NCBI RefSeq assembly: GCF_000355695.1
Contig: NC_020891.1
Span: 2,728,001-2,792,000, forward strand
DNA length: 64,000 nucleotides
Reading direction: 5' to 3'
DNA from: Clavibacter nebraskensis NCPPB 2581
GTDB taxonomy: Bacteria > Actinomycetota > Actinomycetes > Actinomycetales > Microbacteriaceae
Shown here piece by piece: positions 41,973 to 64,000 of this stretch (position 1 is the first letter of the stretch; every line of letters begins with the position of its first letter). The notes under the pieces were generated by a model. That model saw only the letters and a list, made by a program, of their open reading frames with translations. It was not told the DNA's origin and did not search any database. A program made the position numbers and the translations under genes.

Positions 41973-42251
41973 TCAGCGACGCACGGACTTGGGGCCGCCG
42001 ACCTTCACGTAGATGAACAGCACGATGATGGCGCCGATGATCGAGCCGATGATGCCGGCGGGCTGGAAGAAGCCCTCCATGGCGTCGTGCTGGAAGAGCA
42101 GGAAGCCGAGGAATCCGCCGACGAACGAGCCGACGATGCCGAGCACGATGGTCATGAGGATGCCGATGTTCTGGCGTCCGGGCACGACGGCGCGGGCGAT
42201 GAAGCCCGCGATGAGGCCGACGACGATGAGGCTGATGATGAGTCCGAGCAT
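41973..42251 (-). CDS. GlsB/YeaQ/YmgE-type membrane protein
   Basis: This 92-residue protein has three hydrophobic segments and the Gly-rich pattern of the transglycosylase-associated (GlsB/YeaQ/YmgE) family. GFIARAVVPGRQ and GFLGFLLF, then AGIIGSIIGAIIVLF, are typical. Members are stress-inducible in several bacteria. The gene is divergent from the LuxR regulator, with 124 nt between the starts. Confidence 0.9.
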   Translation of the reverse strand: MLGLIISLIVVGLIAGFIARAVVPGRQNIGILMTIVLGIVGSFVGGFLGFLLFQHDAMEGFFQPAGIIGSIIGAIIVLFIYVKVGGPKSVRR

Positions 42252-42334
42252 GGTGATCTCTCTTCTGTGCGAGCACGTCAGGAGGACGCGCGGTGGTGCC
42301 CGTTCGGGGCGATGACCTCAATCAACCACCCTCC

Positions 42335-42354
42335 GGGGTGTGGGTGCACACCCC
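42335..42354. promoter_or_regulatory. inverted repeat upstream of the LuxR gene
   Basis: GGGGTGTG-GGTG-CACACCCC is a perfect 8-bp inverted repeat 21 bp before the LuxR ATG, in the divergent region shared with the GlsB-type gene. It is a candidate LuxR operator or leader hairpin. Confidence 0.45.
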
Positions 42355-42375
42355 TGGGGGTGGGATCCTGGATCC

Positions 42376-43044
42376 ATGCCCGCCACCCGCACCCGCCCCG
42401 TCACGATCGCGCTCGTCGACGACTACGACGTGGTGCTGAAGGGCCTCGCCCACATGTTCGACGACTATCGCGACCGAGTGGTCGTCGCCGAGATCGACGC
42501 GAACGCGGCCCTCTCCGACGAGATCGACATCGTGCTCTACGACTCGTTCGCGCAGCCGGAGTCCGACCACCACGAGATCGCGGAGCTGGTGCGGAACCCG
42601 CGGGCCCGCCGCGTGGTCGTCTACACCTGGAACTTCCAGCCCGAGCTGATCGCCGACGCCCGCCGGCAGGGCGTGCAGGGCTACCTCTCCAAGGCGCTGC
42701 CGGCGCGGGAGCTCGTGGAGGCGCTCGAGCGGATCCACCAGGGGGAGGAGCTGTTCAGCGAGGCGCCGCTGCGGGCCGCGAGCGCGCCGTCGCTCGACTG
42801 GCCGGGCAAGCGCGAGGGGATCACGGACCGCGAGTCGGAGATCCTCGCGCTCATCACACAGGGCAAGAGCAACCAGGAGGTCGCGGCGCTCACGTACCTC
42901 TCCCCCAACACGGTGAAGAGCTACATCCGCTCGATCTACCGGAAGATCCAGGTGCAGAGCCGCACGCAGGCGGTCATCTGGGGCGTGGGGCACGGCTTTA
43001 GCCCGGACCACCATCGGATCGACCACTGGCTGGGCGGGCCGTAG
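42376..43044 (+). CDS. NarL/LuxR-type response regulator
   Basis: This 222-residue two-domain regulator has a receiver (residues 10-130) with acidic residues in LVDDYD and a candidate phosphoacceptor D56 in VLYDSF. The LuxR helix-turn-helix at the end reads ITDRESEILALITQGKSNQEVA and SPNTVKSYIRSIYRKIQVQ. The receiver is loosely conserved; the usual Lys is present in LSKAL. No histidine kinase is nearby. The last 254 bp are repeated exactly at 47902-48155. ATG at 42376 is preferred over an upstream GTG. Confidence 0.9.
   Translation: MPATRTRPVTIALVDDYDVVLKGLAHMFDDYRDRVVVAEIDANAALSDEIDIVLYDSFAQPESDHHEIAELVRNPRARRVVVYTWNFQPELIADARRQGVQGYLSKALPARELVEALERIHQGEELFSEAPLRAASAPSLDWPGKREGITDRESEILALITQGKSNQEVAALTYLSPNTVKSYIRSIYRKIQVQSRTQAVIWGVGHGFSPDHHRIDHWLGGP
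42791..43044 (+). repeat. 254-bp direct repeat, left copy (3' end of luxR-type gene)
   Basis: From CGCTCGACTGG to the TAG stop, this segment appears identical over all 254 positions to 47902-48155. It encodes the helix-turn-helix half of the response regulator. It brackets the restriction-modification island on its left side. Confidence 0.95.
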
Positions 43045-43095
43045 GAGGGACTGGTCGCCGCACAGCAGAATTTACACTCGCGAACTCGGAACGGA

Positions 43096-46065
43096 TCACT
43101 CCGGATCGAGAACACGAGCCACGAGCTCCGGATCCAGTTGGTAAGCGCTCGAGAGCAACTCCTCGACCTCTAGCTGAAGGAGACGGCGGCGGTCCTTCAT
43201 GGTCGACGCTATCGCCGTGTCGCTCTCATCACGAAGCTGGACAGCGAGATCTCGAAGCTCTTCTACGCGTTCCTCGATGACGAGCTGCGCGCGGTCCGAG
43301 AGCGCCGGAACGGGGATGCCCTTCAAGAACTCCTTCCGATGCACAGCATACGAACCTCTGTACTTCTTACCCGCAACCGACACCATTAAATCAACCACGG
43401 GATGGGAAAGGATCGCCTGAATGACATCCATCGAGTAGGGACAGTCCGCATCAGGTCGAAGGAAACCGTAGGGGCCCCCGTCTCCCCCACCGGGCGCGAC
43501 TAGCCCTTCATGATCGACCGCATACCTGGGACTCAGAGACATCACCCTGGCAATGAGCTTGGGCCCACTAAGTTTGCTGAGCGACTGCGACCTCCCAAAC
43601 GCCCAGAAGGCCTCGCCTGGATCCGGCGACACATTCCGCCCGTGTTGTAATTTGCCCCTGTGGCGATCGAAGTACTTCGCGGCAAGAGGGTATTGCGTGC
43701 GCATGACATCTTCCGTGATGAGCTTCATACGACGACTTTCGGAATCTAAGACGTAGGGGAATATGACCCGCCTGTCCGGGATCGGCTGTCCATCGTAAAC
43801 GGCTATTTTACGATCCTTCAGCGCGGGCTTCAAGAGGCTTGCCTCGATCCCAGTACGCACTCCTTCGATATCGATGAACTCCACGATTCCTGCGTCGTCG
43901 CCGTCATCAATCGGTTTGAGGAAGAACCACTCATCGGCACTCGTCTGGACGCCCACGAAGATGTCGACCCAACCTGGATCGCCCAGGCGGGCCACGCAGT
44001 TTGCGGCTAGTTGGCCGAACAGTGTGGTTTGATCGACAGTCGCGAAGGGCCAGGTCGCGGGACCGAGCGAGGTGCGCTCCACCTCTAGGAATGTTGCGCT
44101 GCGAGCCGTCCTCCATGCTTCCAAATCCCCAACCATGGCAATCGAGACCGCATCATCTCTCTTCGGGCCCGCGACGACAATGGCGGTGTACGTCGTACGT
44201 CCCGGAAAGACCTGCTGCTCACCAAAGTGAACCATGGACTCAAGACGTGGGCCCAGCTTGCGCCTGACACCACTCGCGGAGAGATGGCTTGCAAAACGGT
44301 TCGGTACGATCATGCCTAGACGGCCGTCAGGAGCCAGTAGCTCTAACGCCCGCTCCATGAAAACGAGATAAAGGTCGAAGTTATTAGCGACCGGGGCATC
44401 ATAGAGTGACGCGCCGTGCTGCAGGTACTGCAGCTGATCCGGCATGTGGCGAGCGAGATCTTGAATGCGCACGTACGGCGGATTCCCCAAGACCACACTG
44501 AAGCCCCTTCTGGGATACGCCGCCCCTATGGCCGCCTTGATGTCGAGGGGGCTTACAAGTGCGCGGCGGTGCGGCACACGCGCTGCGGCAGGAACGAGCG
44601 CGTCGAAGTCCTCGCGCACGACAGCGTTGCCGACCACGATGTTCCGATCTAAGTTCGGCAGCACTCCCCGGGCGATCGCCGGATCGACATCTTGGTTACC
44701 GAGTACCGCAAGCTGGAGACTGAGCTTCGCGACCTCCACAGCAGCCCCGTCGATGTCGATACCGAATAGATGCGATCGCACAAGCGCTCCGCGCTCCGCC
44801 AGCGACAGACGGGGGCGCGCCAGTTCCGCCGCTTCAACCAGCCGGTCAAATGCATCGAGGAGGAAGACTCCGCTGCCAACTGCCGGATCGAGCACGGTCA
44901 GGTCTTCGGGCACACCCTCCGCCAGAGCAGGCCCCAAAGCCTGGTGCCCGATTTCTTTCACGATGTCGTCGGGCGTCGCTACGACCCCAGCAGCATGAAC
45001 GAGTTCTGGCTTTAATATGAGAGTGACGCGCCGGCATTCGTCGAGGTCGACCCGCTCAGCCAGGTACTGCTCGTATACGCCCGCGAGGATACTCGCGTCG
45101 AGGACACCGAACGCATACTGCGTGCGCGGCCAATACATGTCCTCGACCACAAGCATCAGCACGTCCGCATCGACGGTGGTCCCGTGCAACACATTGAACA
45201 ACCCCGCATTGTAAACTCGATCGGCAGCCTGAAACGCTTCCACCAAGGTTCGCGATCGCGCCGAGTCAAACAGGCTGCGATAGCGCCCTATTTCCCGATC
45301 CTCGCAGACGCGCAGAAATAGAAGAGCGTTCAGCAGGCTCTGAGCCCGGCGACCTACTTCAGGCGCGCCGAGGGCTGGATTACCATCGGCAACAGCTTGA
45401 GCCAACGACTGACGCCAGTGACGGAAGTCACCGAGAAAGCGCTGATCGAAAGGCGACTCACCCCGGGGCGGGCGGGCGAAGTCGTAGATGCCTTCGAGCC
45501 CGGTAACCCTGAGGGATTCGTATGAGACGAGACGCCAGAGCTCGTCGAATCGAGTAACGAATTCCTCGAAACCGAAGACGCCTCCAGGCAGGACCGCGAC
45601 CGACGGGCCGTCGGTTTCACGCGGCTCTACTCGCGAATCGAAAACGATGAGTTCGTGGAAGTTCGTGAGAACGGCAGCGGGGAGCGACAGAGACCAACCG
45701 TACGACCGCGCCTGTCGCGAGGACGAAGCATTTGTAGCCAAGGAGACGGACGGCTTTTTCGCCTCGATCGGCATGACGTCCATTCCGTCCAAACGGAGGC
45801 GGTAGTCCGGCCGACCCCACGATCCGTCGGCGTCTCTTCCTGTCCGCTCCCTTACAACCTCAACTGACCTCTGGCTATGTGCGCCCTGGTTCCTGACATC
45901 CCAGCCGAGACACTCGAGGAGGGGGTCGATGAACTCCACACGGACATCAGTCTCTGTGTACGTCGATCCTGGCCGGACGAGCTCAGAGGCCACACCTCGG
46001 TAACGCGCGACGAGGTCGGTGACGCGACGGAGCCCCTCGGACTTGGTGACCCGGGCAAAGACCAT
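43096..46065 (-). CDS. type IIG restriction-methyltransferase
   Basis: At 989 residues this has the full layout of a single-chain restriction enzyme and methylase. The N-terminus holds a PD-(D/E)xK nuclease site (P86-D87, E101-A-K103). A helical linker follows, then an N6-adenine methylase with motif I DPAVGSG (393-399) and catalytic NPPY (528-531). The last 350 residues form a TaqI-like target-recognition domain and a final coiled segment. It would cut unmodified foreign DNA and methylate one strand of the site. No Shine-Dalgarno is evident before ATG 46065. It is divergent from the second methylase, 78 nt away. Confidence 0.88.
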   Translation of the reverse strand: MVFARVTKSEGLRRVTDLVARYRGVASELVRPGSTYTETDVRVEFIDPLLECLGWDVRNQGAHSQRSVEVVRERTGRDADGSWGRPDYRLRLDGMDVMPIEAKKPSVSLATNASSSRQARSYGWSLSLPAAVLTNFHELIVFDSRVEPRETDGPSVAVLPGGVFGFEEFVTRFDELWRLVSYESLRVTGLEGIYDFARPPRGESPFDQRFLGDFRHWRQSLAQAVADGNPALGAPEVGRRAQSLLNALLFLRVCEDREIGRYRSLFDSARSRTLVEAFQAADRVYNAGLFNVLHGTTVDADVLMLVVEDMYWPRTQYAFGVLDASILAGVYEQYLAERVDLDECRRVTLILKPELVHAAGVVATPDDIVKEIGHQALGPALAEGVPEDLTVLDPAVGSGVFLLDAFDRLVEAAELARPRLSLAERGALVRSHLFGIDIDGAAVEVAKLSLQLAVLGNQDVDPAIARGVLPNLDRNIVVGNAVVREDFDALVPAAARVPHRRALVSPLDIKAAIGAAYPRRGFSVVLGNPPYVRIQDLARHMPDQLQYLQHGASLYDAPVANNFDLYLVFMERALELLAPDGRLGMIVPNRFASHLSASGVRRKLGPRLESMVHFGEQQVFPGRTTYTAIVVAGPKRDDAVSIAMVGDLEAWRTARSATFLEVERTSLGPATWPFATVDQTTLFGQLAANCVARLGDPGWVDIFVGVQTSADEWFFLKPIDDGDDAGIVEFIDIEGVRTGIEASLLKPALKDRKIAVYDGQPIPDRRVIFPYVLDSESRRMKLITEDVMRTQYPLAAKYFDRHRGKLQHGRNVSPDPGEAFWAFGRSQSLSKLSGPKLIARVMSLSPRYAVDHEGLVAPGGGDGGPYGFLRPDADCPYSMDVIQAILSHPVVDLMVSVAGKKYRGSYAVHRKEFLKGIPVPALSDRAQLVIEERVEELRDLAVQLRDESDTAIASTMKDRRRLLQLEVEELLSSAYQLDPELVARVLDPE

Positions 46066-46079
46066 GCGGTGAGGCTACC

Positions 46080-46094
46080 GTGCGGTTGCCGCAC
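46080..46094. promoter_or_regulatory. inverted repeat in the divergent restriction-modification promoter region
   Basis: GTGCGG-TTG-CCGCAC lies 14 nt from the type IIG start and 49 nt from the methylase start. It could bind a regulator, or one of the enzymes, to balance the two genes. A CAGAAT box at 46132-46137 would give a leaderless methylase transcript. Confidence 0.4.
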
Positions 46095-46143
46095 CGGAGG
46101 AGGCACGGACACGAGTGTCAGTCGGGCAAGGCAGAATTGAGTC

Positions 46144-47742
46144 ATGACGACCGTGTTCGCAGCCAAGAGCGCCCCCTCGAGCGAGAAGCTGCGCGGGGGG
46201 TACTACACGCCCGAGCCGCTCGCGAGGTTCGTAGCCGCCTGGGTCGCCGTCGCCGGCGACGAACTGCTTGAGCCGTCGTGTGGGGACGGGGAGATCCTGC
46301 AGTTCCTCGCGGCCTCGGGCCGAGCGACGGGCGTCGAGCTGTTCCCCCTCGAGGCCGCTGCGGCTCGCGAGCGCACGGGTGCAGACGTCTTCGACGGGGA
46401 CTTCTTCTCATGGTTCGCTCCCGAGCGCCATGGGACGTTCGACGGCGTAGCGGGCAACCCTCCGTTCATCCGCTACGGATCGTGGGAGGAACAGTACCGA
46501 GAGCCCGCCTTCGAGCTCATGCGCTCTGAAGGCTTGAGCCCTACTAGGCTGACCAACGCTTGGCTTCCATTCGTAGTCGCATCCGTCGTGGCAGTTCGCG
46601 ACGGCGGCCGAGTAGGCCTCGTGATCCCAGCGGAGCTATTGCAGGTCGGCTACGCCGCTCAAGTGCGCGCGTATCTTGTGGACCAATGTAGTGAGATCAC
46701 GATCGTCGCATTCCGTGAGCTGGTCTTTCCCGGCGTCCTTCAAGAAGTGGTGCTACTACTGGTCACCAAAGGTAATGGCCCCGCTTCCATCCGCACCGTC
46801 GAAGTGACGAATGGAGCGCATCTCACAGACGTCGACCTCGATGTCGCAGCCATTCGCGCCCCTCTTCATGGCTCTGAGAAGTGGACCAAGTACTTCCTCG
46901 ACGTCGTTCAGATCGGCCTCCTGCGCGACCTTAAGAACGACTCACGCCTGGCCCGCCTCGAGCGCTACGCAAAAGTCAATGTCGGAGTGGTGACTGGACG
47001 GAACTCCTTTTTCTGCATGACGGAGGCGGAGGCGCAGCGTCTCGGAATAGAGGAGCACACTCTTCCCCTGCTCTCTCGGTCTGCGCAATTCACCGGGGTG
47101 GGCCTGACCTCGCAAGACCTGAGATCACAGGCCGCACGAGGAGCCATGACTAGGTTGCTCGCGCTCGATCCCGCGCACGACGTCGCATCCGACCCCTCCC
47201 TGTCGCGGTACGTTCGGTTGGGCTTACAAGACGGCGTCAACGACGGTTACAAGTGCCGCATCCGCCAATCCTGGTGGTCTGTTCCTTCAATCTCGCAGCC
47301 GGATGGATTTATGTTGAGGCAGGTTTCGACCTACCTACGCTTTCTCAGCAATGACACCGGAGCCACTAGTACCGACACAGTGCATCGCGTCTTCGTGAAG
47401 CCTGGCGTAGACATGAGGAGGCTAACGGTCGCTGCCCTTAACTCCGCGACGCAGGCCATGTCAGAGGTCCTCGGCCGAAGCTACGGCGGTGGCCTTCTGG
47501 AAGTCGAACCTACTGAAGCCGTGGCGCTTCTCGTGCCGGATCCCGAGTTGATCGATGAAGACCTCATGTCAAGAGTCGACGATCTTTTGAGAAATGGACA
47601 GATTGAGCAAGCCATCGCACTTGTGGATCAGCGGGTCATGATCGACCGCCTCGACTTCTCGGAGGCCGAGATCGGGGCCATCCGCGAAGCAGGATACCTG
47701 CTTCGAGAACGTCGTTTGCGTCGCGGTCGGAAAAGCACGTGA
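46144..47742 (+). CDS. N6-adenine DNA methyltransferase
   Basis: This 532-residue class I methyltransferase begins with the SEKLRGGYYTPEPLARF element typical of gamma-type N6-adenine methylases. It has motif I LEPSCGDGE (42-50) and NPPF (105-108), followed by a long target-recognition region ending in a basic tail. The size and layout recall PaeR7I/XhoI-like methylases, which I note only as a resemblance. Placed back to back with a type IIG enzyme, it probably methylates the strand or site that the fused enzyme leaves unprotected. A solitary methylase role is possible. Confidence 0.85.
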   Translation: MTTVFAAKSAPSSEKLRGGYYTPEPLARFVAAWVAVAGDELLEPSCGDGEILQFLAASGRATGVELFPLEAAAARERTGADVFDGDFFSWFAPERHGTFDGVAGNPPFIRYGSWEEQYREPAFELMRSEGLSPTRLTNAWLPFVVASVVAVRDGGRVGLVIPAELLQVGYAAQVRAYLVDQCSEITIVAFRELVFPGVLQEVVLLLVTKGNGPASIRTVEVTNGAHLTDVDLDVAAIRAPLHGSEKWTKYFLDVVQIGLLRDLKNDSRLARLERYAKVNVGVVTGRNSFFCMTEAEAQRLGIEEHTLPLLSRSAQFTGVGLTSQDLRSQAARGAMTRLLALDPAHDVASDPSLSRYVRLGLQDGVNDGYKCRIRQSWWSVPSISQPDGFMLRQVSTYLRFLSNDTGATSTDTVHRVFVKPGVDMRRLTVAALNSATQAMSEVLGRSYGGGLLEVEPTEAVALLVPDPELIDEDLMSRVDDLLRNGQIEQAIALVDQRVMIDRLDFSEAEIGAIREAGYLLRERRLRRGRKST

Positions 47743-47769
47743 CGCATTGCCCCGACCACGGACTTCGCT

Positions 47770-47901
47770 TCACCTTGGGTTCATATTGCGCCTCAAATAG
47801 TCCGCGATGCAAGCGTCGATGTCGAACGGTGGCGCTTCTCCGCTCGCCTCACGGGCGACCAGCGTTGCTCGCAGCGCCTCGACCTGCGGCTCCTGCTACC
47901 G
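47770..47901 (-). pseudogene. truncated ParD antitoxin remnant
   Basis: The minus strand encodes about 40 residues (QEPQVEALRATLV, AREASGEAPPFDIDA, CIADYLRR) and a TGA stop at 47770. They match the C-terminus of the intact antitoxin at 48482-48715 ([35 protein letters not shown]). Nucleotide identity over about 97 bp is roughly 80 percent by eye. Similarity ends at the edge of the 254-bp repeat, so the rest of the gene was cut away there. Confidence 0.8.
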
Positions 47902-48155
47902 CGCTCGACTGGCCGGGCAAGCGCGAGGGGATCACGGACCGCGAGTCGGAGATCCTCGCGCTCATCACACAGGGCAAGAGCAACCAGGAGGTCGCGGCGC
48001 TCACGTACCTCTCCCCCAACACGGTGAAGAGCTACATCCGCTCGATCTACCGGAAGATCCAGGTGCAGAGCCGCACGCAGGCGGTCATCTGGGGCGTGGG
48101 GCACGGCTTTAGCCCGGACCACCATCGGATCGACCACTGGCTGGGCGGGCCGTAG
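47902..48155 (+). repeat. 254-bp direct repeat, right copy
   Basis: This is an apparently exact copy of 42791-43044, the 3' end of the response regulator gene including its TAG stop. The flanking bases on both sides differ from those of the left copy. It marks the right boundary of the restriction-modification island. Confidence 0.95.
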
Positions 48156-52832: not shown

Positions 52833-53861
52833 TCAGTCGCGCGGCTCGCCCGTGAGGGGCCGGATCACGCGGTGGCCGTCGAGCGAGCGCGCCGCCTCGA
52901 GGACGTGGGCCGGCGTGATCGCGAGGAGCGCCGGATCCGGGATCGCCGAGAACGTGTCGCCGAGGCGCTGGGAGGCGTCGGTCAGCACGATGTGCGGGCC
53001 GGACGCGGGCGGGCCCCACTCCTCGGGCGGGGCCGGGCCGAAGATCACGACCGAGGGGATGCCGTAGGCGGTCGCGAGGTGGGCGGCACCGGTGTCGGCG
53101 GAGATCACGAGGTCGGCGGCGGCGATGATGCCGGCGAACGCGTCGAGGGCCAGCTCGCCCGCGAGCACGGTCTCCGTCGGCATTCCGGCGAGGGCCGCGA
53201 CCTCGAGGGCGCGCTCGCGCTCCTTGTCGGATCCGGTGAAGACGACCGTGCGGCCCTCGTCGGCGAGCGCGCGGGCGACCTCGGCGAAACGGTCGACGGG
53301 CCACTGGCGGGAACCGTAGGCGGCGCCCACGTGGATCACGACGGCGTGCTCGGCGACGGGCGTCTCGGCGGGGACGAGGATGCCGACGTCCTCGGGATCC
53401 GCAGGCATGCCGTGCCACGACACGAGCCGGGCCCAGCGGTAGCGCTCGAGGACGTGGTCCTCCCAGGCGGGGCCGTCGGCGGCGGGCATCCCGTCGAGCT
53501 CGGGGGCGGCGTGGCCGAGGGTGCGGTGCGCGCGCAGCTCGTGGAGGAGGGTGCGGCTCTCGATCCCGGCGCCGTGCAGGTTGATCGCGAGGTTGACCGT
53601 GCCAGGCGCGCGCGCGATGGGGTGGTCGAAGCCCTGCTGCGGGAGGTGCTCGTCGATCATGCCGAGGAGCTCGACGACCGGCGCGAGCCAGCCGGTGGTG
53701 GCGAGCGAGATGCGGGCGTCGGGGTGCGCGCGGCGGATGGCGCGGAGCGCGGGGACGGCCACGAGGATGTCGCCGAGCTTGATGGCGCGGAGGACGAGGA
53801 TCTCGGCGGGGGCGGAAGCGGGCACGGCGTCGGGAGCGGCGCTGGCGCCGGGGATCTGCAT
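52833..53861 (-). CDS. glycosyltransferase family 9 (heptosyltransferase-like)
   Basis: This 342-residue protein has the GT9 two-domain layout. The N-terminal motif is ILVLRAIKLGDILVAVPALRAI; the C-terminal nucleotide-sugar site includes VVIHVGAAYGSRQWP and LVISADTGAAHLATAYGIPSVVIFGP. GT9 enzymes mostly transfer ADP-heptose in Gram-negative lipopolysaccharide; here it could use the heptose made by the 59-64 kb operon. The acceptor is unknown. A degraded copy of its 3' end lies at 51671-51770. Confidence 0.88.
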   Translation of the reverse strand: MQIPGASAAPDAVPASAPAEILVLRAIKLGDILVAVPALRAIRRAHPDARISLATTGWLAPVVELLGMIDEHLPQQGFDHPIARAPGTVNLAINLHGAGIESRTLLHELRAHRTLGHAAPELDGMPAADGPAWEDHVLERYRWARLVSWHGMPADPEDVGILVPAETPVAEHAVVIHVGAAYGSRQWPVDRFAEVARALADEGRTVVFTGSDKERERALEVAALAGMPTETVLAGELALDAFAGIIAAADLVISADTGAAHLATAYGIPSVVIFGPAPPEEWGPPASGPHIVLTDASQRLGDTFSAIPDPALLAITPAHVLEAARSLDGHRVIRPLTGEPRD

Positions 53862-57486: not shown

Positions 57487-58332
57487 ATGACCCTCCGCGC
57501 CGATGACACCCTCCAGGACGGACGGGCGCTCGTCGGCCCGGTCGACGCCCCCGAGCTGCACGTGATGACGTACAACCTCCGGCGCCTGTTCCGCCGGTAC
57601 CGGCCGGGCAGCCCCGACCGCTGGGCGGATCGCGAGCCGCTCATCGCCGAGCTGCTCCGGCGCGAGCAGCCGGCGCTCCTCGGCACGCAGGAGGCGATGC
57701 CCACGCAGGGCCGCGCGCTGTCGCACGCGCTCGGGCGGCACTACCGGCGGATCGGGCACGGCCGCAACGCCGACGGCCACGGCGAGGGCTGCCCCACCTT
57801 CTACGACACGCGCCGCCTCGAGCTCACGAGCTGGCGCCAGGTCGCGCTCTCGGACACGCCCGCGGTCGCCGGCTCCCGCAGCTGGGGCAACATGGTGCCG
57901 CGGATCGCCGTGGTCGCCGACTTCACGGATCGCGCCACCGGTCTGCCGCTGCGCCACGTGAACACGCACTTCGACCACCTCTCCCGGCGGTCGCGCGAGG
58001 AGTCCGCGCGGATGATGCTCGGGATCGTCGCCGAGGTGCAGGTGCCCACGATCGTCGCGGGCGACACCAACGCGGGCGTCGACACGGAGCCGCACCGGCT
58101 GCTGATCGAGTCGGGCGCGCTCGTCGACGCCTGGCCCGCCGCGCGCGAGCGGCTCACGCCCGAGTGGGGCACGTGGTCGAACTACAAGGCGCCAAAGCGC
58201 ACGACCCGCCGCATCGACTGGATGCTCGTCACGCCCGACGTCGAGGTGGAGCGCGTGGGCATCAACACCACGCGCATCGGCGGCCGCGCGCCGAGCGACC
58301 ACGAGGCGCTGCAGGCGGTGGTGCGGTGCTGA
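57487..58332 (+). CDS. endonuclease/exonuclease/phosphatase-family protein
   Basis: This 281-residue protein has the EEP fold: MTYNLRRLF (Asn), LLGTQEAMP (Glu metal ligand), NTHFDHLSRRSREESARMM, VAGDTNAG (Asp/Asn) and the final PSDHEAL (Asp-His pair). The family includes phosphodiesterases, nucleases and sphingomyelinases; there is no signal peptide, so a cytosolic phosphodiesterase is likely. It overlaps the next gene by 7 nt. Confidence 0.9.
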   Translation: MTLRADDTLQDGRALVGPVDAPELHVMTYNLRRLFRRYRPGSPDRWADREPLIAELLRREQPALLGTQEAMPTQGRALSHALGRHYRRIGHGRNADGHGEGCPTFYDTRRLELTSWRQVALSDTPAVAGSRSWGNMVPRIAVVADFTDRATGLPLRHVNTHFDHLSRRSREESARMMLGIVAEVQVPTIVAGDTNAGVDTEPHRLLIESGALVDAWPAARERLTPEWGTWSNYKAPKRTTRRIDWMLVTPDVEVERVGINTTRIGGRAPSDHEALQAVVRC

Positions 58333-58985
58333 CGGATCCGACCGGGGCGACCCCGCCGGACGCGCCGGCCGCACCCGCGGACGTCGCGGCCTTCGCCGGG
58401 CTGGCCGGGCTCACCTTCCTGCAGCCGCCGCGCGGGATCACGGCGGTCCTCGCCGACGTCGTCCGCGTGATCGGGCTCCTCACGTTCCTCTTCTCCGTGT
58501 TCGCGTGGACGGGCACGACGTCGGCGATGTTCGCGCTCGCGCTGCTCGGGCTCGTGGCTCCGCGGGGTCTCGGGGCGCGGCCGGGGCTGGATCTCGGGAT
58601 CGGGATCACCACGCTCGTCTCGGCCGCGAGCAACCGGCTCGACCTCTACGAGACGCTGCCGTGGTGGGACATCCCCGCGCACCTCATCACGACGGCGGCG
58701 CTCGCCGCGCTCGTGATCCTGCTCGCCGACCGCGCGGGCGTCGTGGTCGACCGGCGGCCGCTGCCCCTCGGGTTCCTCGCGCTCACGGTGGGCCTCGCGC
58801 TCTCGGCGCTGTGGGAGCTCGGCGAGTGGGCGGGGCAGGCGTGGCTGGATCCGGAGATCCTCACCGGGTACTCGGACACCATCGGCGACATGGCGGTCGG
58901 CGGGCTGGGGGCGCTGCTCATCGCGCCGCTCATGCCGATGCTGCTGGCGCGGTCGCGGTGGATCTCGGAGGCGCCCCGGCGCTGA
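58326..58985 (+). CDS. integral membrane protein, YjdF/DUF2238-like
   Basis: This 219-residue protein has about five membrane helices. The pattern YETLPWWDIPAHLITTAAL, then ALWELGEWAGQ and SDTIGDMAVGGLGALL, resembles YjdF-type (DUF2238) proteins, in which Asp, His, Glu and Asp-Thr-x-x-Asp residues line a putative site. The function is unknown. GTG at 58326 overlaps the upstream gene, so they are coupled. Confidence 0.65.
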   Translation: MLTDPTGATPPDAPAAPADVAAFAGLAGLTFLQPPRGITAVLADVVRVIGLLTFLFSVFAWTGTTSAMFALALLGLVAPRGLGARPGLDLGIGITTLVSAASNRLDLYETLPWWDIPAHLITTAALAALVILLADRAGVVVDRRPLPLGFLALTVGLALSALWELGEWAGQAWLDPEILTGYSDTIGDMAVGGLGALLIAPLMPMLLARSRWISEAPRR

Positions 58986-59096: not shown

Positions 59097-59122
59097 GTTT
59101 GGCTCGAGGAGCAGCCGGGTAC
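59097..59122 (+). promoter_or_regulatory. SigB/SigF-type promoter of the heptose operon
   Basis: GTTT (59097-59100) and GGGTAC (59117-59122) are separated by 16 bp, fitting the actinobacterial SigB/SigF consensus GTTT-N14-17-GGGTAY. The expected start point, 7-10 nt after GGGTAC, falls at or next to the ATG at 59132, so the message would be leaderless. No Shine-Dalgarno precedes the ATG. Confidence 0.6.
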
Positions 59123-59131
59123 TGGCCGGTC

Positions 59132-60715
59132 ATGCGCTCGCCCGGGAACGACCTCGAGGCCGTCCTGTTCGACCGGGACGGGACGCTCGTCGTCGACGTG
59201 CCGTACAACGGCGATCCCGCCCTCGTCGCGCTCATGCCCGGCGCCCGCGAGGCCGTCGACGCCGTGCGCGCCGCGGGCCTCCGCGTCGGGATGGTGACCA
59301 ACCAGTCCGGCATCGCGCGCGGCCTCATCACGCGCGCGCAGGCCGACGCCGTCAACGCGCGCGTGCAGGAGCTGCTCGGCGCGTTCGACCTCGTGCTGCT
59401 GTGCCCGCACGGATCCGACGACGGCTGCGACTGCCGCAAGCCGCGGCCCGGCATGGTGCTCGAGGCCTGCCGGACGTGGGGCGTGGATCCGTCGCGCGTC
59501 GCCGTCGTGGGCGACATCGCCGCCGACATGGGCGCCGCCCGGGCCGCGGGCGCGCGCGGCGTGCTCGTGCCGACGCCCGTCACGCGCGAGGAGGAGGTGG
59601 CCGAGGCGGAGCTGGTGGCCCCGACGATCCTCGACGCGGTGCACCTCCTCATCCACGACCCGGCGCCCCGCCGCGTGCTCGTCGTGCGACTCGACTCGGT
59701 GGGCGACGTGCTGATCTCCGGCCCCGCCGTGCGCGCCGTCGCGGCCTCGTCGGCCGTCGAGGTCCACCTGCTCTGTGGCCCGCGCGGCGCGTCCGCCGGT
59801 CGACTGCTGCCCGGCGTCCACGCGGTGCACGTGTGGGAAGCGCCATGGATCTCCTCCCCCGCGCCCGCCGCCGACGCCGCCTCGGTCGACGCCCTGCACG
59901 CGATCCTCGCGGAGGTCGACGCGGACGAGGCCGTCATCCTCACGTCCTTCCACCAGTCGCCGCTCCCGCTCGCGCTGCTGCTGCGGCTCGCGGGCGTCGG
60001 CCGGATCACGGGCGCCAGCGTCGACTACGCCGGCTCCCTCCTCGACGTGCGCCTCAAGCCCGGCGAGGACCTCGACGAGGACCAGCCCGAGCCCGAGCGC
60101 GCCCGCGCGATCGCCGCCGCGGCCGGCCACGCGCTGCCCGCGGACGACGACGGTCGCCTCGCCGTCCTACCGGCCGAGCTGTCGTCCGACGTGGCGGCGC
60201 TCCTCCCCGACGGCCCGTTCGCGCTCGTCCACCCGGGCGCCGCGGTCGGCGCGCGCTCCTATCCGGCCGACCAGCACCGCGACGCCGTGGCGCTCCTGGC
60301 CGAGCGCGGGATCCCCGTGGTCGTCACGGGCGGCCCCGACGAGCGGGACCTCACGGCGCACGTCGCCGGATCCGCCGGCCTCGACCTCGGCGGCCGCACC
60401 GACCTCGCCGGCCTCGGCGCGCTCATGCGCCGCGCGGCCGTGCTCGTGAGCGGCAACACCGGCCCCGCGCACCTCGCCGCCGCCGTGGGGCTGCCCGTCG
60501 TCAGCCTGTTCTCGCCCGTCGTGCCGCCGATCCGCTGGGCGCCGTACCGCGTGCCCGTGATCCTCCTCGGCGACCAGGACGCGGCCTGCAAGCTGAGCCG
60601 CGCGCGTGACTGCCCGATCCCGGGCCACCCGTGCCTCGCGGGCGTCTCGCCGGCCGAGGTCGCCGACGCGGTGGAACGGCTGATGGCGACGAGCCGCACG
60701 GAGGTGCCCGCATGA
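59132..60715 (+). CDS. fusion of GmhB-type heptose bisphosphate phosphatase and GT9 glycosyltransferase
   Basis: This 527-residue fusion joins two activities. Residues 1-170 are a HAD phosphatase of the GmhB type: DRD at 14-16, TNQSG at 56-60 and the GmhB zinc site C91-P-H93 with C99-D-C101, then RKPRPG. Residues 185-520 are a GT9 (heptosyltransferase) domain: RVLVVRLDSVGDVLISGPAVRAV, ALVHPGAAVGARSYP and SGNTGPAHLAAAVGLPVVSLF (each in parts). It would dephosphorylate heptose 1,7-bisphosphate and transfer heptose. It is first in an operon; its stop overlaps the next start (ATGA). Confidence 0.9.
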   Translation: MRSPGNDLEAVLFDRDGTLVVDVPYNGDPALVALMPGAREAVDAVRAAGLRVGMVTNQSGIARGLITRAQADAVNARVQELLGAFDLVLLCPHGSDDGCDCRKPRPGMVLEACRTWGVDPSRVAVVGDIAADMGAARAAGARGVLVPTPVTREEEVAEAELVAPTILDAVHLLIHDPAPRRVLVVRLDSVGDVLISGPAVRAVAASSAVEVHLLCGPRGASAGRLLPGVHAVHVWEAPWISSPAPAADAASVDALHAILAEVDADEAVILTSFHQSPLPLALLLRLAGVGRITGASVDYAGSLLDVRLKPGEDLDEDQPEPERARAIAAAAGHALPADDDGRLAVLPAELSSDVAALLPDGPFALVHPGAAVGARSYPADQHRDAVALLAERGIPVVVTGGPDERDLTAHVAGSAGLDLGGRTDLAGLGALMRRAAVLVSGNTGPAHLAAAVGLPVVSLFSPVVPPIRWAPYRVPVILLGDQDAACKLSRARDCPIPGHPCLAGVSPAEVADAVERLMATSRTEVPA

Positions 60716-61764
60716 GGATCCTGATGTGGCACGTCCACGGCGGCTGGACCGACTCGTTCGTGCTCGGATCCCACGAGATCCTGTTCCCCACCACGCCCGC
60801 CCGCGACGCGTGGGGCCTCGGCCGCGGCGGCCGCGCGTGGCCCGCGAGCGCCCGCGAGGTGGATCCGTCGTCCCTGCACGAGACGCACGTCGACCTCGTG
60901 CTCCTCCAGCGCGTCCCGGAGATCGAGGAGGCGGAGCGACTGCTCGGCCGCCGCCTCGGATCCGACGTGCCCGCCGTCTTCCTCGAGCACAACACCCCGC
61001 GCGGCGCCCCGACCGAGACCGTGCACGCGCTCGCCGGCCGTGACGACATCCCCGTGATCCACGTCACGCGCTTCAACGCGCTCATGTGGGACACCGGCAT
61101 CGCGCCGACCACGGTCGTCGAGCACGGAGTGCCCGACCCGGGCGCGCTCTACACGGGCGAGTCCGCGTCGTTCGGCGCGGTGATCAACGAGCCCGTGCGC
61201 CGCGGCCGCATCACCGGCACCGACCTGCTGCCCGCGTTCGCGGAGGTCGCGCCCGTCGAGGTGTTCGGCATGGGCACGGACCTCCTGCCCGGCGCGTTCC
61301 CCGACCTCGGCGCGCGCCTCGTGCCGCGCGGCGACCTGCCGACCGCGCGCATGCACCCCGAGCTCGCGATGCTCCGCGCCTACGTCCACCCGCACCGCTG
61401 GACCTCGCTCGGCCTGTCGCTGCTCGAGGCGATGCACATGGCGATGCCCGTGCTGGTGCTCGACGCGACCGAGGCGTCGCGCGCGGTGCCGCCGGACGCG
61501 GGCGCGATCTCGTCCGACCCCGCCGACCTCGTGCGCGTCGCCCGCCTGCTCCTCGAGGATCCCGACGAGGCCGCCCGCCGCGGCCGCGTCGCCCGCGAGG
61601 CCGCGCTCGCCCGCTACTCGCTCGGCCGCTTCCTGCACGACATGGACGCCGTGCTGCACGACGCCGTGGACGCGACCGCCGGGCGTCGCGCCCGACGCGC
61701 GCCCGCCGGATCCACCCCCACGCACTCCCCGCACCACCCGCTCGACGAGAGGACGACACGATGA
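60712..61764 (+). CDS. GT4-like glycosyltransferase
   Basis: The 350-residue protein has a GT-B fold of the GT4 type. ILMWHVHGGW opens it; VFLEHNTPRG and VIHVTRFNALMWDT follow, and the sugar-nucleotide site is HPHRWTSLGLSLLEAMHMAMPVLVLDATE with its Glu, then DAGAISSDP. It probably adds a sugar to the same glycan as its neighbours. Both ends overlap neighbouring genes in ATGA junctions, which keeps production in step. Confidence 0.82.
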   Translation: MRILMWHVHGGWTDSFVLGSHEILFPTTPARDAWGLGRGGRAWPASAREVDPSSLHETHVDLVLLQRVPEIEEAERLLGRRLGSDVPAVFLEHNTPRGAPTETVHALAGRDDIPVIHVTRFNALMWDTGIAPTTVVEHGVPDPGALYTGESASFGAVINEPVRRGRITGTDLLPAFAEVAPVEVFGMGTDLLPGAFPDLGARLVPRGDLPTARMHPELAMLRAYVHPHRWTSLGLSLLEAMHMAMPVLVLDATEASRAVPPDAGAISSDPADLVRVARLLLEDPDEAARRGRVAREAALARYSLGRFLHDMDAVLHDAVDATAGRRARRAPAGSTPTHSPHHPLDERTTR

Positions 61765-63710
61765 GGATCGCGATGATCTCGGAGCACGCCAGCCCGCTGG
61801 CGACGCTCGGCGGCGTGGACGCCGGCGGCCAGAACGTGCACGTCGCGGCGCTGTCCGCGGCGCTCGCGGAGGAGGGCCACACCGTCACCGTCTACACGCG
61901 CCGGGACGACGAGGCGCTGCCGGCCCGCGTCGCCTTCGCGCCCGGCGTGGAGGTCGTGCACCTCGACGCCGGACCCGCGCGCGCCGTCCCCAAGGACGAG
62001 CTGCTGCCGCACATGGGCGAGCTCGCCGACGGCCTCCTCGCCGACTGGCGCACCGCCCGGCCCGACGTGGTGCACAGCCACTTCTGGATGTCCGGGGTCG
62101 CCGCGCTCGACGCCGCCGCGCGCCTCGCGTCCTCCCCCGTGGGCGCCGCCGCGGCCCCGCCGGTGCTGCACACCTTCCACGCGCTCGGATCCGTGAAGCG
62201 CCGCCACCTCGGCGCCGAGGACACCAGCCCCGCCGCGCGCGCCGAGCTCGAGCCCGGGGTCGGCCGCCGCGCCGACGCCGTCATCGCCACCTGCTCCGAC
62301 GAGGCCGCCGAGCTCGTGCGCGCGGGCGTCGACGCGGCCCGCATCACGGTGATCCCGTGCGGCGTCGACATCGAGCACTTCACGCCGCGCGCGGACGACG
62401 ACGATGCCGCCGGCCCGATGCGCGTCATGGTCGTCGGCCGCCTGGTGCCGCGCAAGGGCGTCGACCTCGCGATCGAGGCCGTCGGGATCCTCGCCCGCCG
62501 CGGCCACCGCGACGTCGAGCTGGTCGTCGTCGGCGGATCCGGCGACGCCGCGAGCGGAGCCGACGACCCCGAGGCCCGCCGACTCATGGACGCCGCCCGC
62601 GCCGCCGGGGTCGCCGACCGCGTGCGCCTGCACGGCCGCGTCTCCCAGGCCGACATGCCCGCCGTGATGCGCACCGCCGACGTCGTGGTGTGCGCGCCCT
62701 GGTACGAGCCGTTCGGCATCGTCCCGCTCGAGGCGATGGCCTCCGGCGTGCCCGTCGTCGCGTCCGCGGTCGGCGGCCTCACCGACAGCGTGGTCGACGG
62801 CGTGACGGGGATCCTCGTACCGCCGCGCGACCCCGCCGCCATCGCCGACGCCCTCGGGGAGCTCCGCGCGGATCCCGCCCGCCGCCGCCGCCTCGGCCGC
62901 GCCGGCCGCGCCCGCATGGAGCACGGCTACGCGTGGTCGACGGTCGCCGCGCGCACCGCCGAGGCGTACCGGGCCGCGATCCAGGCCGCCGCCCCCGACG
63001 ACCTCCCCGCCGACCCGACCGTGGTCGACGCCCACCTCGACGCGCTCGCCCCCGTGCTCGCCGACCTCCGCACGCACGCGCCGCGCCTCACCGCGTGGGG
63101 CCGCGAGATGGCCGACCGCCTCAGCCACGGCGCGCGCCTCATCGCAGCCGGCAACGGCGGATCCGCGGCCGAGGCCCAGCACCTCACGAGCGAGCTGGTG
63201 GGCCGCTTCGATGGCGACCGCCGCCCGTTCTCGGCCATCGCGCTGCACTCGGAGTCGTCCGCGGTCACGGCCATCGGCAACGACTACGGCTTCGACGAGG
63301 TCTTCGCCCGGCAGGTGCACGCGCACGCGAGATCCGGCGACATCGTCGTGCTGCTCTCCACGAGCGGCCGCAGCGAGAACCTCCTCCGGGCCGCGGCCGC
63401 CGCGCGCGCCGCCGGTGCGACGACCTGGGCGATGACGGGCCCCGGCCCGAACCCGCTCGTGGAGGCGTGCGACGAGTCCCTAGCGCTCGACGGGCCGTCG
63501 GCCAACGTGCAGGAGGCGCAGCTCGTCGCCGTGCACGCGATCTGCCGATCGTTCGAGAGCCGGCTGCAGGCGAACGACCGGGCCGCCGCCCGCGCGTCCG
63601 CGACGACGGCCGCCGCGACCCTGTCGGCCTCGGCCGCCGCATCCGCGTCCGTCCCCGTGACCGTCGCGCCCGCGTCCACCACGACCGCGCCCGCGGAGGT
63701 GCCGGCATGA
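61761..63710 (+). CDS. fusion of GT4 glycosyltransferase and GmhA-type sedoheptulose 7-phosphate isomerase
   Basis: This 649-residue fusion has an N-terminal GT4 transferase (residues 1-410: GGVDAGGQNVHVAALS, VVGRLVPRKGVDLAIEA, PWYEPFGIVPLEAMASG). The SIS domain covers about 420-600 and has the GmhA signature AAGNGGSAAEAQHLTSELVG, then LLSTSGRSENLL and a QEAQLVAVHAIC helix with metal-binding His. GmhA makes D-glycero-D-manno-heptose 7-phosphate, the first step of the pathway. A low-complexity Ala/Ser/Thr/Pro tail follows. ATGA overlaps link it to both neighbours. Confidence 0.9.
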   Translation: MRIAMISEHASPLATLGGVDAGGQNVHVAALSAALAEEGHTVTVYTRRDDEALPARVAFAPGVEVVHLDAGPARAVPKDELLPHMGELADGLLADWRTARPDVVHSHFWMSGVAALDAAARLASSPVGAAAAPPVLHTFHALGSVKRRHLGAEDTSPAARAELEPGVGRRADAVIATCSDEAAELVRAGVDAARITVIPCGVDIEHFTPRADDDDAAGPMRVMVVGRLVPRKGVDLAIEAVGILARRGHRDVELVVVGGSGDAASGADDPEARRLMDAARAAGVADRVRLHGRVSQADMPAVMRTADVVVCAPWYEPFGIVPLEAMASGVPVVASAVGGLTDSVVDGVTGILVPPRDPAAIADALGELRADPARRRRLGRAGRARMEHGYAWSTVAARTAEAYRAAIQAAAPDDLPADPTVVDAHLDALAPVLADLRTHAPRLTAWGREMADRLSHGARLIAAGNGGSAAEAQHLTSELVGRFDGDRRPFSAIALHSESSAVTAIGNDYGFDEVFARQVHAHARSGDIVVLLSTSGRSENLLRAAAAARAAGATTWAMTGPGPNPLVEACDESLALDGPSANVQEAQLVAVHAICRSFESRLQANDRAAARASATTAAATLSASAAASASVPVTVAPASTTTAPAEVPA

Positions 63711-64000
63711 GGATCGTCGTGGTCGGCGACGTGCTGCTCGACGTCGACATGACCGGTGCCGCGCACCGCCTCAGCCCCGACGCGCCCGTGCCGGTGATCG
63801 AGGTCGAGGAGTCGCTGCCCCGCGCGGGCGGCGCCGGCCTCGTCGCGACGATGCTCGCGCGCGACGGGCACGACGTGCGCCTCGTCACCGTGCTGTCCGA
63901 CGACCGCCACTCCGCGACGCTGCGCGCCTGCCTCGACCGGATCGAGGTGGTCGCCGGCCCGTCCGGCGCGCCCACGCCCGTGAAGACCCGCGTCCGCGCC
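63707..64000 (+). CDS. HldE-type heptose 7-phosphate kinase, partial
   Basis: The first 98 codons of a PfkB/ribokinase-type kinase are visible; the gene is cut by the window end. MRIVVVGDVLLDVDM, then HRLSPDAPVPVIEVEES and RAGGAGLVATMLARDG match the kinase domain of HldE (RfaE). It would phosphorylate heptose 7-phosphate at C1. Whether an adenylyltransferase domain follows cannot be seen. ATG overlaps the upstream stop (ATGA). Confidence 0.85.
   Translation, partial: MRIVVVGDVLLDVDMTGAAHRLSPDAPVPVIEVEESLPRAGGAGLVATMLARDGHDVRLVTVLSDDRHSATLRACLDRIEVVAGPSGAPTPVKTRVRA

What the first reader, a model, noticed from the sequence alone, without database searches (positions are those of the whole stretch)
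59097..64000. Heptose-nucleotide pathway in a Gram-positive, encoded as fused enzymes in a fully overlapping operon
Four consecutive genes joined by three ATGA overlaps encode GmhB-GT9, GT4, GT4-GmhA and an HldE-type kinase. Together they cover isomerase, kinase and phosphatase steps for glycero-manno-heptose and at least three transferases. ADP-heptose is classically a Gram-negative lipopolysaccharide precursor and an immune-active metabolite. Fusing a synthesis enzyme to a transferase, twice in one operon, suggests channelling of heptose into a surface glycan of an actinobacterium. Motifs and overlaps are read directly; pathway is family knowledge; glycan use is inference.
Basis: partly seen in the sequence, partly recalled or inferred. 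Interest (0 to 1): 0.82.

Follow-up and report, generated by a model that had tools for sequence, protein, structure and literature searches.

The report
Actinobacterial heptose-glycan operon with fused enzymes
A Gram-positive plant-associated bacterium of the genus Clavibacter carries a conserved set of overlapping genes that is predicted to make an activated seven-carbon sugar best known from Gram-negative lipopolysaccharide and would likely attach it to a still unknown glycan, and in this genus two of the predicted sugar-making enzymes are fused to predicted sugar-transferring enzymes.

Summary
Window 59132-65089 encodes GmhB-GT9, a GT4, GT4-GmhA and a complete HldE (kinase plus adenylyltransferase, finished beyond the window), joined by three ATGA overlaps; an SDR gene follows 73 bases later. 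Active-site residues of the GmhA, GmhB and HldE domains are kept. No HldD epimerase passes its cut-off in the genome, so ADP-D,D-heptose is the predicted product. The host is a Clavibacter. The locus is not unique: the order GmhB, GT9, GT4, GT4, GmhA, HldE, SDR recurs in many actinobacterial families, mostly as separate genes that keep 4-base overlaps. GT4-GmhA is one ORF in 13 of 79 assessable loci and GmhB-GT9 in 3 of 76; only the three Clavibacter loci have both. Trees need several fusion changes. In Clavibacter two more GT9 genes and a second HldE lie within 30 kb. Heptose nucleotides in actinobacteria are already in print, so the pathway is not new; I found no description of this transferase cluster, its product or these fusions in the open papers searched, and the most relevant paper could not be read. 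Channelling and the glycan are inference. Verdict: a real, widespread heptose-glycosylation cluster, here in its most fused form; a new variant of a known kind.

The parts
59132..60715 (+). Gene 1: GmhB-type phosphatase (residues about 8-172) fused to a GT9 transferase (about 181-495); 527 aa; in-frame TTG at 59099 is an alternative start
   Evidence: D14, D16, C91, C99, C101 same in at least 97% of 75 aligned loci
60712..60715 (+). ATGA overlap, gene 1 stop / gene 2 start
60712..61764 (+). Gene 2: divergent GT4 glycosyltransferase, 350 aa
   Evidence: AlphaFold model mean pLDDT 92.6; GT4 structures are its PDB neighbours
61761..61764 (+). ATGA overlap, gene 2 stop / gene 3 start
61761..63710 (+). 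Gene 3: MshA-like GT4 (about 1-410) fused to GmhA/SIS isomerase (about 421-605), 649 aa with an Ala/Thr/Ser-rich tail
   Evidence: two folded domains, residues 414-416 and tail 630-649 below pLDDT 50
63707..63710 (+). ATGA overlap, gene 3 stop / gene 4 start
63707..64000 (+). Gene 4 (part in window): HldE-type heptose-7-phosphate kinase + heptose-1-phosphate adenylyltransferase; continues to 65089 in the genome (460 aa)
   Evidence: L009:5707-7089
52833..53861 (-). Second GT9 of the locus (342 aa); matches the GT9 family that stands upstream of the core in related loci
   Evidence: best hit falls in neighbour cluster 6 in 52 of the 72 loci it hits

Best explanation
[quoted passage not shown] Predicted steps: the GmhA domain makes heptose 7-phosphate, the HldE kinase domain makes the 1,7-bisphosphate, the GmhB domain removes phosphate 7, and the HldE adenylyltransferase domain makes the nucleotide sugar. 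With no HldD, the sugar would stay in the D,D form. The inverting GT9 domain would then add the heptose, and the two retaining GT4s would add neighbouring residues. Shown: gene order, overlaps, both fusions, kept active-site residues, no HldD match over its cut-off, conservation of the cluster in actinobacteria, and fusion labels that change several times on trees. Inferred: co-transcription, enzyme activities, donor and acceptor, envelope location, and any benefit of fusion (tying precursor supply to the transferase).
For: Domain calls (18, 19). GmhA columns H474, E478, Q584, H592 kept; the deposited GmhA sequences 5lu5 and 5ltz differ from their parent at the columns of E478 and Q584, and all four are the same in at least 97% of 79 aligned loci. 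GmhB DxD and C-x-H...C-x-C kept. HldE nucleotidyltransferase HxGH (338-341) and STT motif kept. Recurrent order in 81 mapped loci with recurrent 4-base overlaps. No HldD over cut-off. Fusion labels: 5 changes on the GT4 tree and 6 on the GT9 tree, at least 3 forced by well-supported branches in each. The three GT9 matches of the genome and its two HldE-type matches over cut-off lie within 30 kb.
Against: Several curated NCBIfam cut-offs are not met (GmhA 130.6 against 209.45; GmhB 122.8 against 178; HldE 271.2 against 521; its kinase domain 139 against 345), so the enzymes are a divergent branch. The GT9 has Asn442 where E. coli WaaC has Asp, Asn in 75 of 75 non-gap rows of its branch, so the donor may not be ADP-heptose. 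No recurring neighbour family looked like a membrane exporter (at least 4 segments by a strict hydropathy count: 5 of 81 loci, all non-recurring ORFs); the count is crude and gave only 2 to a DedA-type protein. One mapped locus, L095, has the GT4 alone without the heptose genes. No heptose chemistry for this genus was found.
Confidence: 0.6

Rival explanations
1. The cluster makes a small heptose-containing metabolite (septacidin-like or a cytosolic glycoside) rather than an envelope glycan.
For: Patchy distribution: 22 of 150 genomes of the family, 34 of 148 of the class. No recurring membrane-exporter-like neighbour (crude). Tailoring-type genes nearby: SDR, aldehyde dehydrogenase, carbamoyltransferase. 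Septacidin precedent.
Against: The same gene order across many families and up to five transferases is more than a sugar-plus-aglycone route needs; none of the 20 neighbour proteins scanned is an aglycone-forming enzyme such as a PKS or NRPS, but not all neighbours were scanned.
Confidence: 0.22
2. The isomerase, kinase and transferases act on a different sugar or a different nucleotide, so that ADP-heptose is not the working donor.
For: Curated cut-offs not met; Asp to Asn in the GT9; HldE carries the Arg of the NTP-promiscuous STTR5 motif, YHPGRSTT, so CDP- or UDP-heptose is possible.
Against: All four steps of one known pathway sit together with kept active sites, and the HldE nucleotidyltransferase domain scores at its curated cut-off (179.3 against 181.5; 182.3).
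Confidence: 0.16
3. The fusions carry no channelling: they are neutral joins of genes that already overlap or abut.
For: Unfused homologues already overlap by 4 bases at GmhB|GT9 (47 of 65) or lie 30-200 bases apart at GT4|GmhA (42 of 57), so small changes would join them. AlphaFold gives two separate domains with a low-confidence hinge and pTM 0.64.
Against: Fusion labels change several times on both trees, and both fusions are kept in the Clavibacter seen: 3 of 3 genomes for GmhB-GT9, and 28 full-length entries at 90% identity or more for GT4-GmhA.
Confidence: 0.45

Closest known systems
ADP-D,D-heptose pathway of Gram-negative bacteria (GmhA, HldE, GmhB, HldD)
   Same: Same four enzyme types with kept active-site residues; HldE bifunctional
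   Different: No HldD over cut-off; GmhA and GmhB are each fused to a glycosyltransferase; divergent from curated models
Tridomain NDP-heptose synthetases of actinobacteria (Tang 2022: title; the enzyme type is described)
   Same: Actinobacterial heptose-nucleotide synthesis, with domain fusion
   Different: There isomerase, kinase and nucleotidyltransferase are one chain; here HldE is didomain and the isomerase sits on a GT4. 0 of 78 assessable loci had GmhA fused to the HldE kinase
Septacidin and hygromycin B heptose biosynthesis in Streptomyces (Tang 2018; cited, not read)
   Same: Heptose derived from sedoheptulose 7-phosphate in Gram-positive bacteria
   Different: Natural-product clusters; here a recurrent multi-glycosyltransferase cluster
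GDP-heptose pathway of Mycobacterium tuberculosis (start of the abstract of PMC7705670 in the listing)
   Same: GmhA in an actinobacterium
   Different: GDP/alpha route; here a PfkB-type kinase and CTP_transf_like nucleotidyltransferase of the beta route
WaaC-type heptosyltransferases (GT9)
   Same: Pfam GT9; D192 aligns with the WaaC GD motif
   Different: Asp to Asn442, fused to GmhB, no LPS acceptor expected in a Gram-positive

Membership tests
ADP-heptose biosynthetic enzyme set | GmhA-type isomerase with His/Glu/Gln/His metal and catalytic residues (roles recalled) | tested here: met
   H474, E478, Q584, H592 of P0003
ADP-heptose biosynthetic enzyme set | PfkB-type heptose kinase plus nucleotidyltransferase with HxGH | tested here: met
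   PF00294 and PF01467 over cut-off; H338, H341, S448, T449
ADP-heptose biosynthetic enzyme set | GmhB HAD phosphatase with DxD and Cys/His zinc loop (roles recalled) | tested here: met
   D14, D16, C91, H93, C99, C101; the His is kept in 62 of 76 loci by pattern
ADP-heptose biosynthetic enzyme set | Curated NCBIfam cut-offs for GmhA, GmhB, HldE | tested here: not met
   130.6/209.45, 122.8/178, 271.2/521, kinase domain 139/345; adenylyltransferase domain borderline, 179.3/181.5 and 182.3 over cut-off. These are naming thresholds; filed as 'works like', not as equivalog
ADP-L,D-heptose pathway | HldD C-6 epimerase | tested here: not met
   best 100.2 bits, cut-off 274.6, whole genome
NTP-promiscuous STTR5 HENase | (F/L)XXGRSTT motif | tested here: inconclusive
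   YHPGRSTT: Arg present, first residue Tyr; Arg at that position in 61 of 75 loci
Tridomain NDP-heptose synthetase | Isomerase, kinase and nucleotidyltransferase in one chain | tested here: not met
   separate ORFs here; 0 of 78 assessable loci fused GmhA-kinase
MshA (mycothiol) | Curated cut-off and best match in genome | tested here: not met
   gene 3 254.8 bits; a better match at C1:3040185-3041345 with 324.2; cut-off 462.5 reached by neither
GT9 heptosyltransferase | PF01075 and the two conserved Asp of WaaC | tested here: inconclusive
   PF01075 met; first Asp kept (D192), second is Asn442
Heptose donor and product | ADP-heptose formed and transferred | not testable with these tools
   needs enzymology

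The most novel reading that the evidence does not exclude
Actinobacteria build an undescribed D,D-heptose glycoconjugate, a Gram-positive counterpart of the LPS inner core, with a conserved set of up to three GT9 and two GT4 transferases. Repeated evolution has hard-wired precursor enzymes to these transferases, in Clavibacter twice in one operon, so that heptose is committed to the glycan and not released as an immune-active nucleotide sugar.
Probability: 0.3. Interest if true: 0.75.

Novelty: new variant of a known kind. Interest (0 to 1): 0.5.

Why it matters
Two short papers ask what heptose nucleotides do in the many organisms that encode the enzymes, and one of them suggests looking at adjacent genes. 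This locus offers a concrete, recurrent gene set: heptose synthesis tied to specific transferases across soil and plant actinobacteria. It gives a testable route to a new Gram-positive glycan and a natural series of fused and unfused pairs for testing channelling.

Tried and rejected
Recent transfer from Gram-negative bacteria: not favoured. The named relatives among the 120 listed hits per protein (of about 8000 scored each) are actinobacteria, except P0102 (named only 'bacterium') and P0314, an HldE whose cut-off name begins 'Neobaci' (the genus Desertivibrio of P0318 is actinobacterial). MshA function of gene 3: not favoured. GmhB-GT9 fusion as an assembly error: unlikely, because 3 of 3 Clavibacter genomes, plus L017 and L072, have it; one further genome of that survey, G294, has an extra GT9 match reaching into the phosphatase part with two stops inside, left unresolved. 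The SDR as an HldD substitute: not supported; its best models are classical SDR ones.

Limits. Fusion was judged by sharing one stop-to-stop ORF. The GT4 tree used 80 of 81 loci (L022, a fused one, was left out by score), 78 with a label. The GT9 tree used 75 loci and 16 hand-chosen of 120 database proteins, which raises its fused share; its P0128 label rests on a phosphatase match that its Pfam listing does not show. Both were quick trees. Some label changes could be losses. may count same-frame neighbours as long matches, so it was not used to count fusions. The exporter check covered only ORFs with relatives in other loci and a crude hydropathy count. It misses the ORF at 58164-58985 just upstream of the operon, which has 3 to 6 such segments by cut-off, no Pfam family and no relative in the other loci. 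Of the literature, PMC11461863 and PMC11573728 were read in their first of two parts, PMC10948575 and PMC12137129 as passages; Tang 2018, Tang 2022 and Tang 2024 were not held.

Full report
What is there. The window lies at 2728001-2792000 of a single 3,063,596-base contig. Named Clavibacter proteins are 90-97% identical to genes 3 and 4, so the host is a Clavibacter. Genes 1-4 are GmhB-GT9 (59132-60715), GT4 (60712-61764), GT4-GmhA (61761-63710) and HldE (63707-65089), with three ATGA overlaps. An SDR gene follows at 65163-65867.

Are the enzymes plausible? Each gene has Pfam families over their cut-offs, but several NCBIfam cut-offs are not reached. The active sites are kept. In GmhA, H474, E478, Q584 and H592 align with residues of solved enzymes, and two deposited GmhA sequences differ from their parent at exactly the columns of E478 and Q584. 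GmhB keeps DxD and the cysteine loop. HldE keeps HxGH and an STT motif, YHPGRSTT, whose Arg is the mark of NTP promiscuity reported for such enzymes, though its first residue is Tyr, not Phe or Leu. The GT9 keeps the first Asp but has Asn442 in place of the second Asp of WaaC; in 75 of 75 non-gap rows of this branch that residue is Asn. The genome has no HldD over cut-off, so D,D-heptose is the predicted form. Gene 2 is a confident model whose nearest solved structures are GT4 enzymes (GlgM, BshA, PimB' and relatives) at 11-20% identity in the 50 rows listed. Gene 3 is modelled as two folded domains with a low-confidence hinge.

How common is it? A capped scan of named genomes gave 80 loci. 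With the window's own, 81 loci were mapped. The order GmhB, GT9, GT4, GT4, GmhA, HldE recurs in Micrococcaceae, Microbacteriaceae, Brevibacteriaceae, Intrasporangiaceae, Conexibacteraceae and others, usually followed by the SDR. Streptosporangiaceae, Nocardiaceae and some Pseudonocardiaceae have it rearranged, the two fully covered Streptomyces loci lack the SDR next to HldE, and one locus (L095) has only the GT4. Most are separate genes. GmhB-GT9 is one ORF in 3 of 76 assessable loci, all Clavibacter; GT4-GmhA in 13 of 79; both only in the 3 Clavibacter loci. In the family survey 22 of 150 genomes match gene 1 at E up to 1e-30, own included, and only the 3 Clavibacter genomes show one full-length match. 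GmhB-GT9 also occurs in Micromonosporaceae; 119 of the 120 listed hits to gene 1 match both parts. Of the phylum sample, 23 of 198 genomes have the GT4 orthologue at 323 bits or more, own included (counted); of the class sample, 34 of 148 at E up to 1e-80.

Fusion history. On a quick GT4 tree of 80 rows the fused label needs 5 changes; on the GT9 tree of 91 rows it needs 6; well-supported branches force at least 3 in each. Some of these could be losses. Unfused relatives keep 4-base overlaps at most GmhB|GT9, GT9|GT4, GT4|GT4 and GmhA|HldE junctions, so fusion looks like the end point of tight coupling.

Wider locus. Among loci with full flanks, Micrococcaceae (27) hold an upstream GT9 family in 20, a downstream GT9 family in 18, an aldehyde dehydrogenase in 8 and a second HldE in 23; Microbacteriaceae (15) in 12, 11, 7 and 12. 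Clavibacter keeps all four: GT9 at 52833-53861 (-), GT9 at 70432-71751 (-), aldehyde dehydrogenase at 79345-80784 and, with another ATGA overlap, a second HldE at 80781-82337 (window numbering carried past the end). Their best hits in other loci fall mostly in the same neighbour clusters: 52 of 72, 34 of 62, 29 of 32 and 63 of 63 loci hit, the last cluster holding both kinds of HldE. In Clavibacter the set is spread out by other genes, among them two GH26, a LacI-type regulator, sugar ABC transport parts and a GH35 gene. PF01075 finds three GT9 in the genome, all here. A carbamoyltransferase stands near the cluster in 18 of 81 loci. By a strict and crude hydropathy count, 5 of 81 loci have a protein with four or more membrane segments within 3 kb, none of them a recurring neighbour; laxer cut-offs blur this, and a DedA-type protein scored only 2. 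An ORF just upstream of the operon, 58164-58985, may be a membrane protein special to this genome.

Reading. The best reading is a cytoplasmic heptose-glycosylation cluster whose product is unknown. Heptose-nucleotide synthesis in actinobacteria is already published, so that part is known. The transferase cluster, its recurrence, the fusions and the Asn-type GT9 are what is added here. In ten searches of open papers I found no description of them; the most relevant actinobacterial paper was not readable, so it may describe part of this. Function, acceptor and channelling are inference.

Noticed in passing
window 43096-46065 (-) and 46144-47742 (+): A lower-GC stretch (2-kb blocks 0.61-0.63 from 42001 to 48000, neighbours mostly 0.69-0.75) holds a type IIG restriction-modification enzyme and a type II methyltransferase by PADLOC models.
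   Followed up: partly
window 52833-53861 (-): A second GT9 gene whose family sits upstream of the heptose operon in related genera; here about 5 kb of other genes lies between.
   Followed up: yes
window 58164-58985 (+): ORF directly upstream of the operon with 3 to 6 hydrophobic segments by cut-off, no Pfam family and no relative in the other mapped loci; could be co-expressed.
   Followed up: partly
L126:4781-6337 (window numbering 80781-82337): A second full HldE that overlaps the preceding aldehyde dehydrogenase gene by ATGA; its nucleotidyltransferase domain is over the curated cut-off. Why two HldE are kept is unexplained.
   Followed up: partly
P0001 residue 442: The GT9 branch of this operon has Asn where WaaC and, by eye, the other two GT9 of the genome have Asp.
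   Followed up: partly
L009:8411-18000 and L126:11-3239: Two GH26-type proteins, a LacI-type regulator, sugar ABC transport parts and a GH35 gene stand inside what is a more compact cluster elsewhere.
   Followed up: partly
L059 (Rathayibacter) 9793 and 11777: GmhA and the HldE nucleotidyltransferase appear in one stop-to-stop ORF with the kinase in another; possibly a frameshift or a real rearrangement.
   Followed up: no
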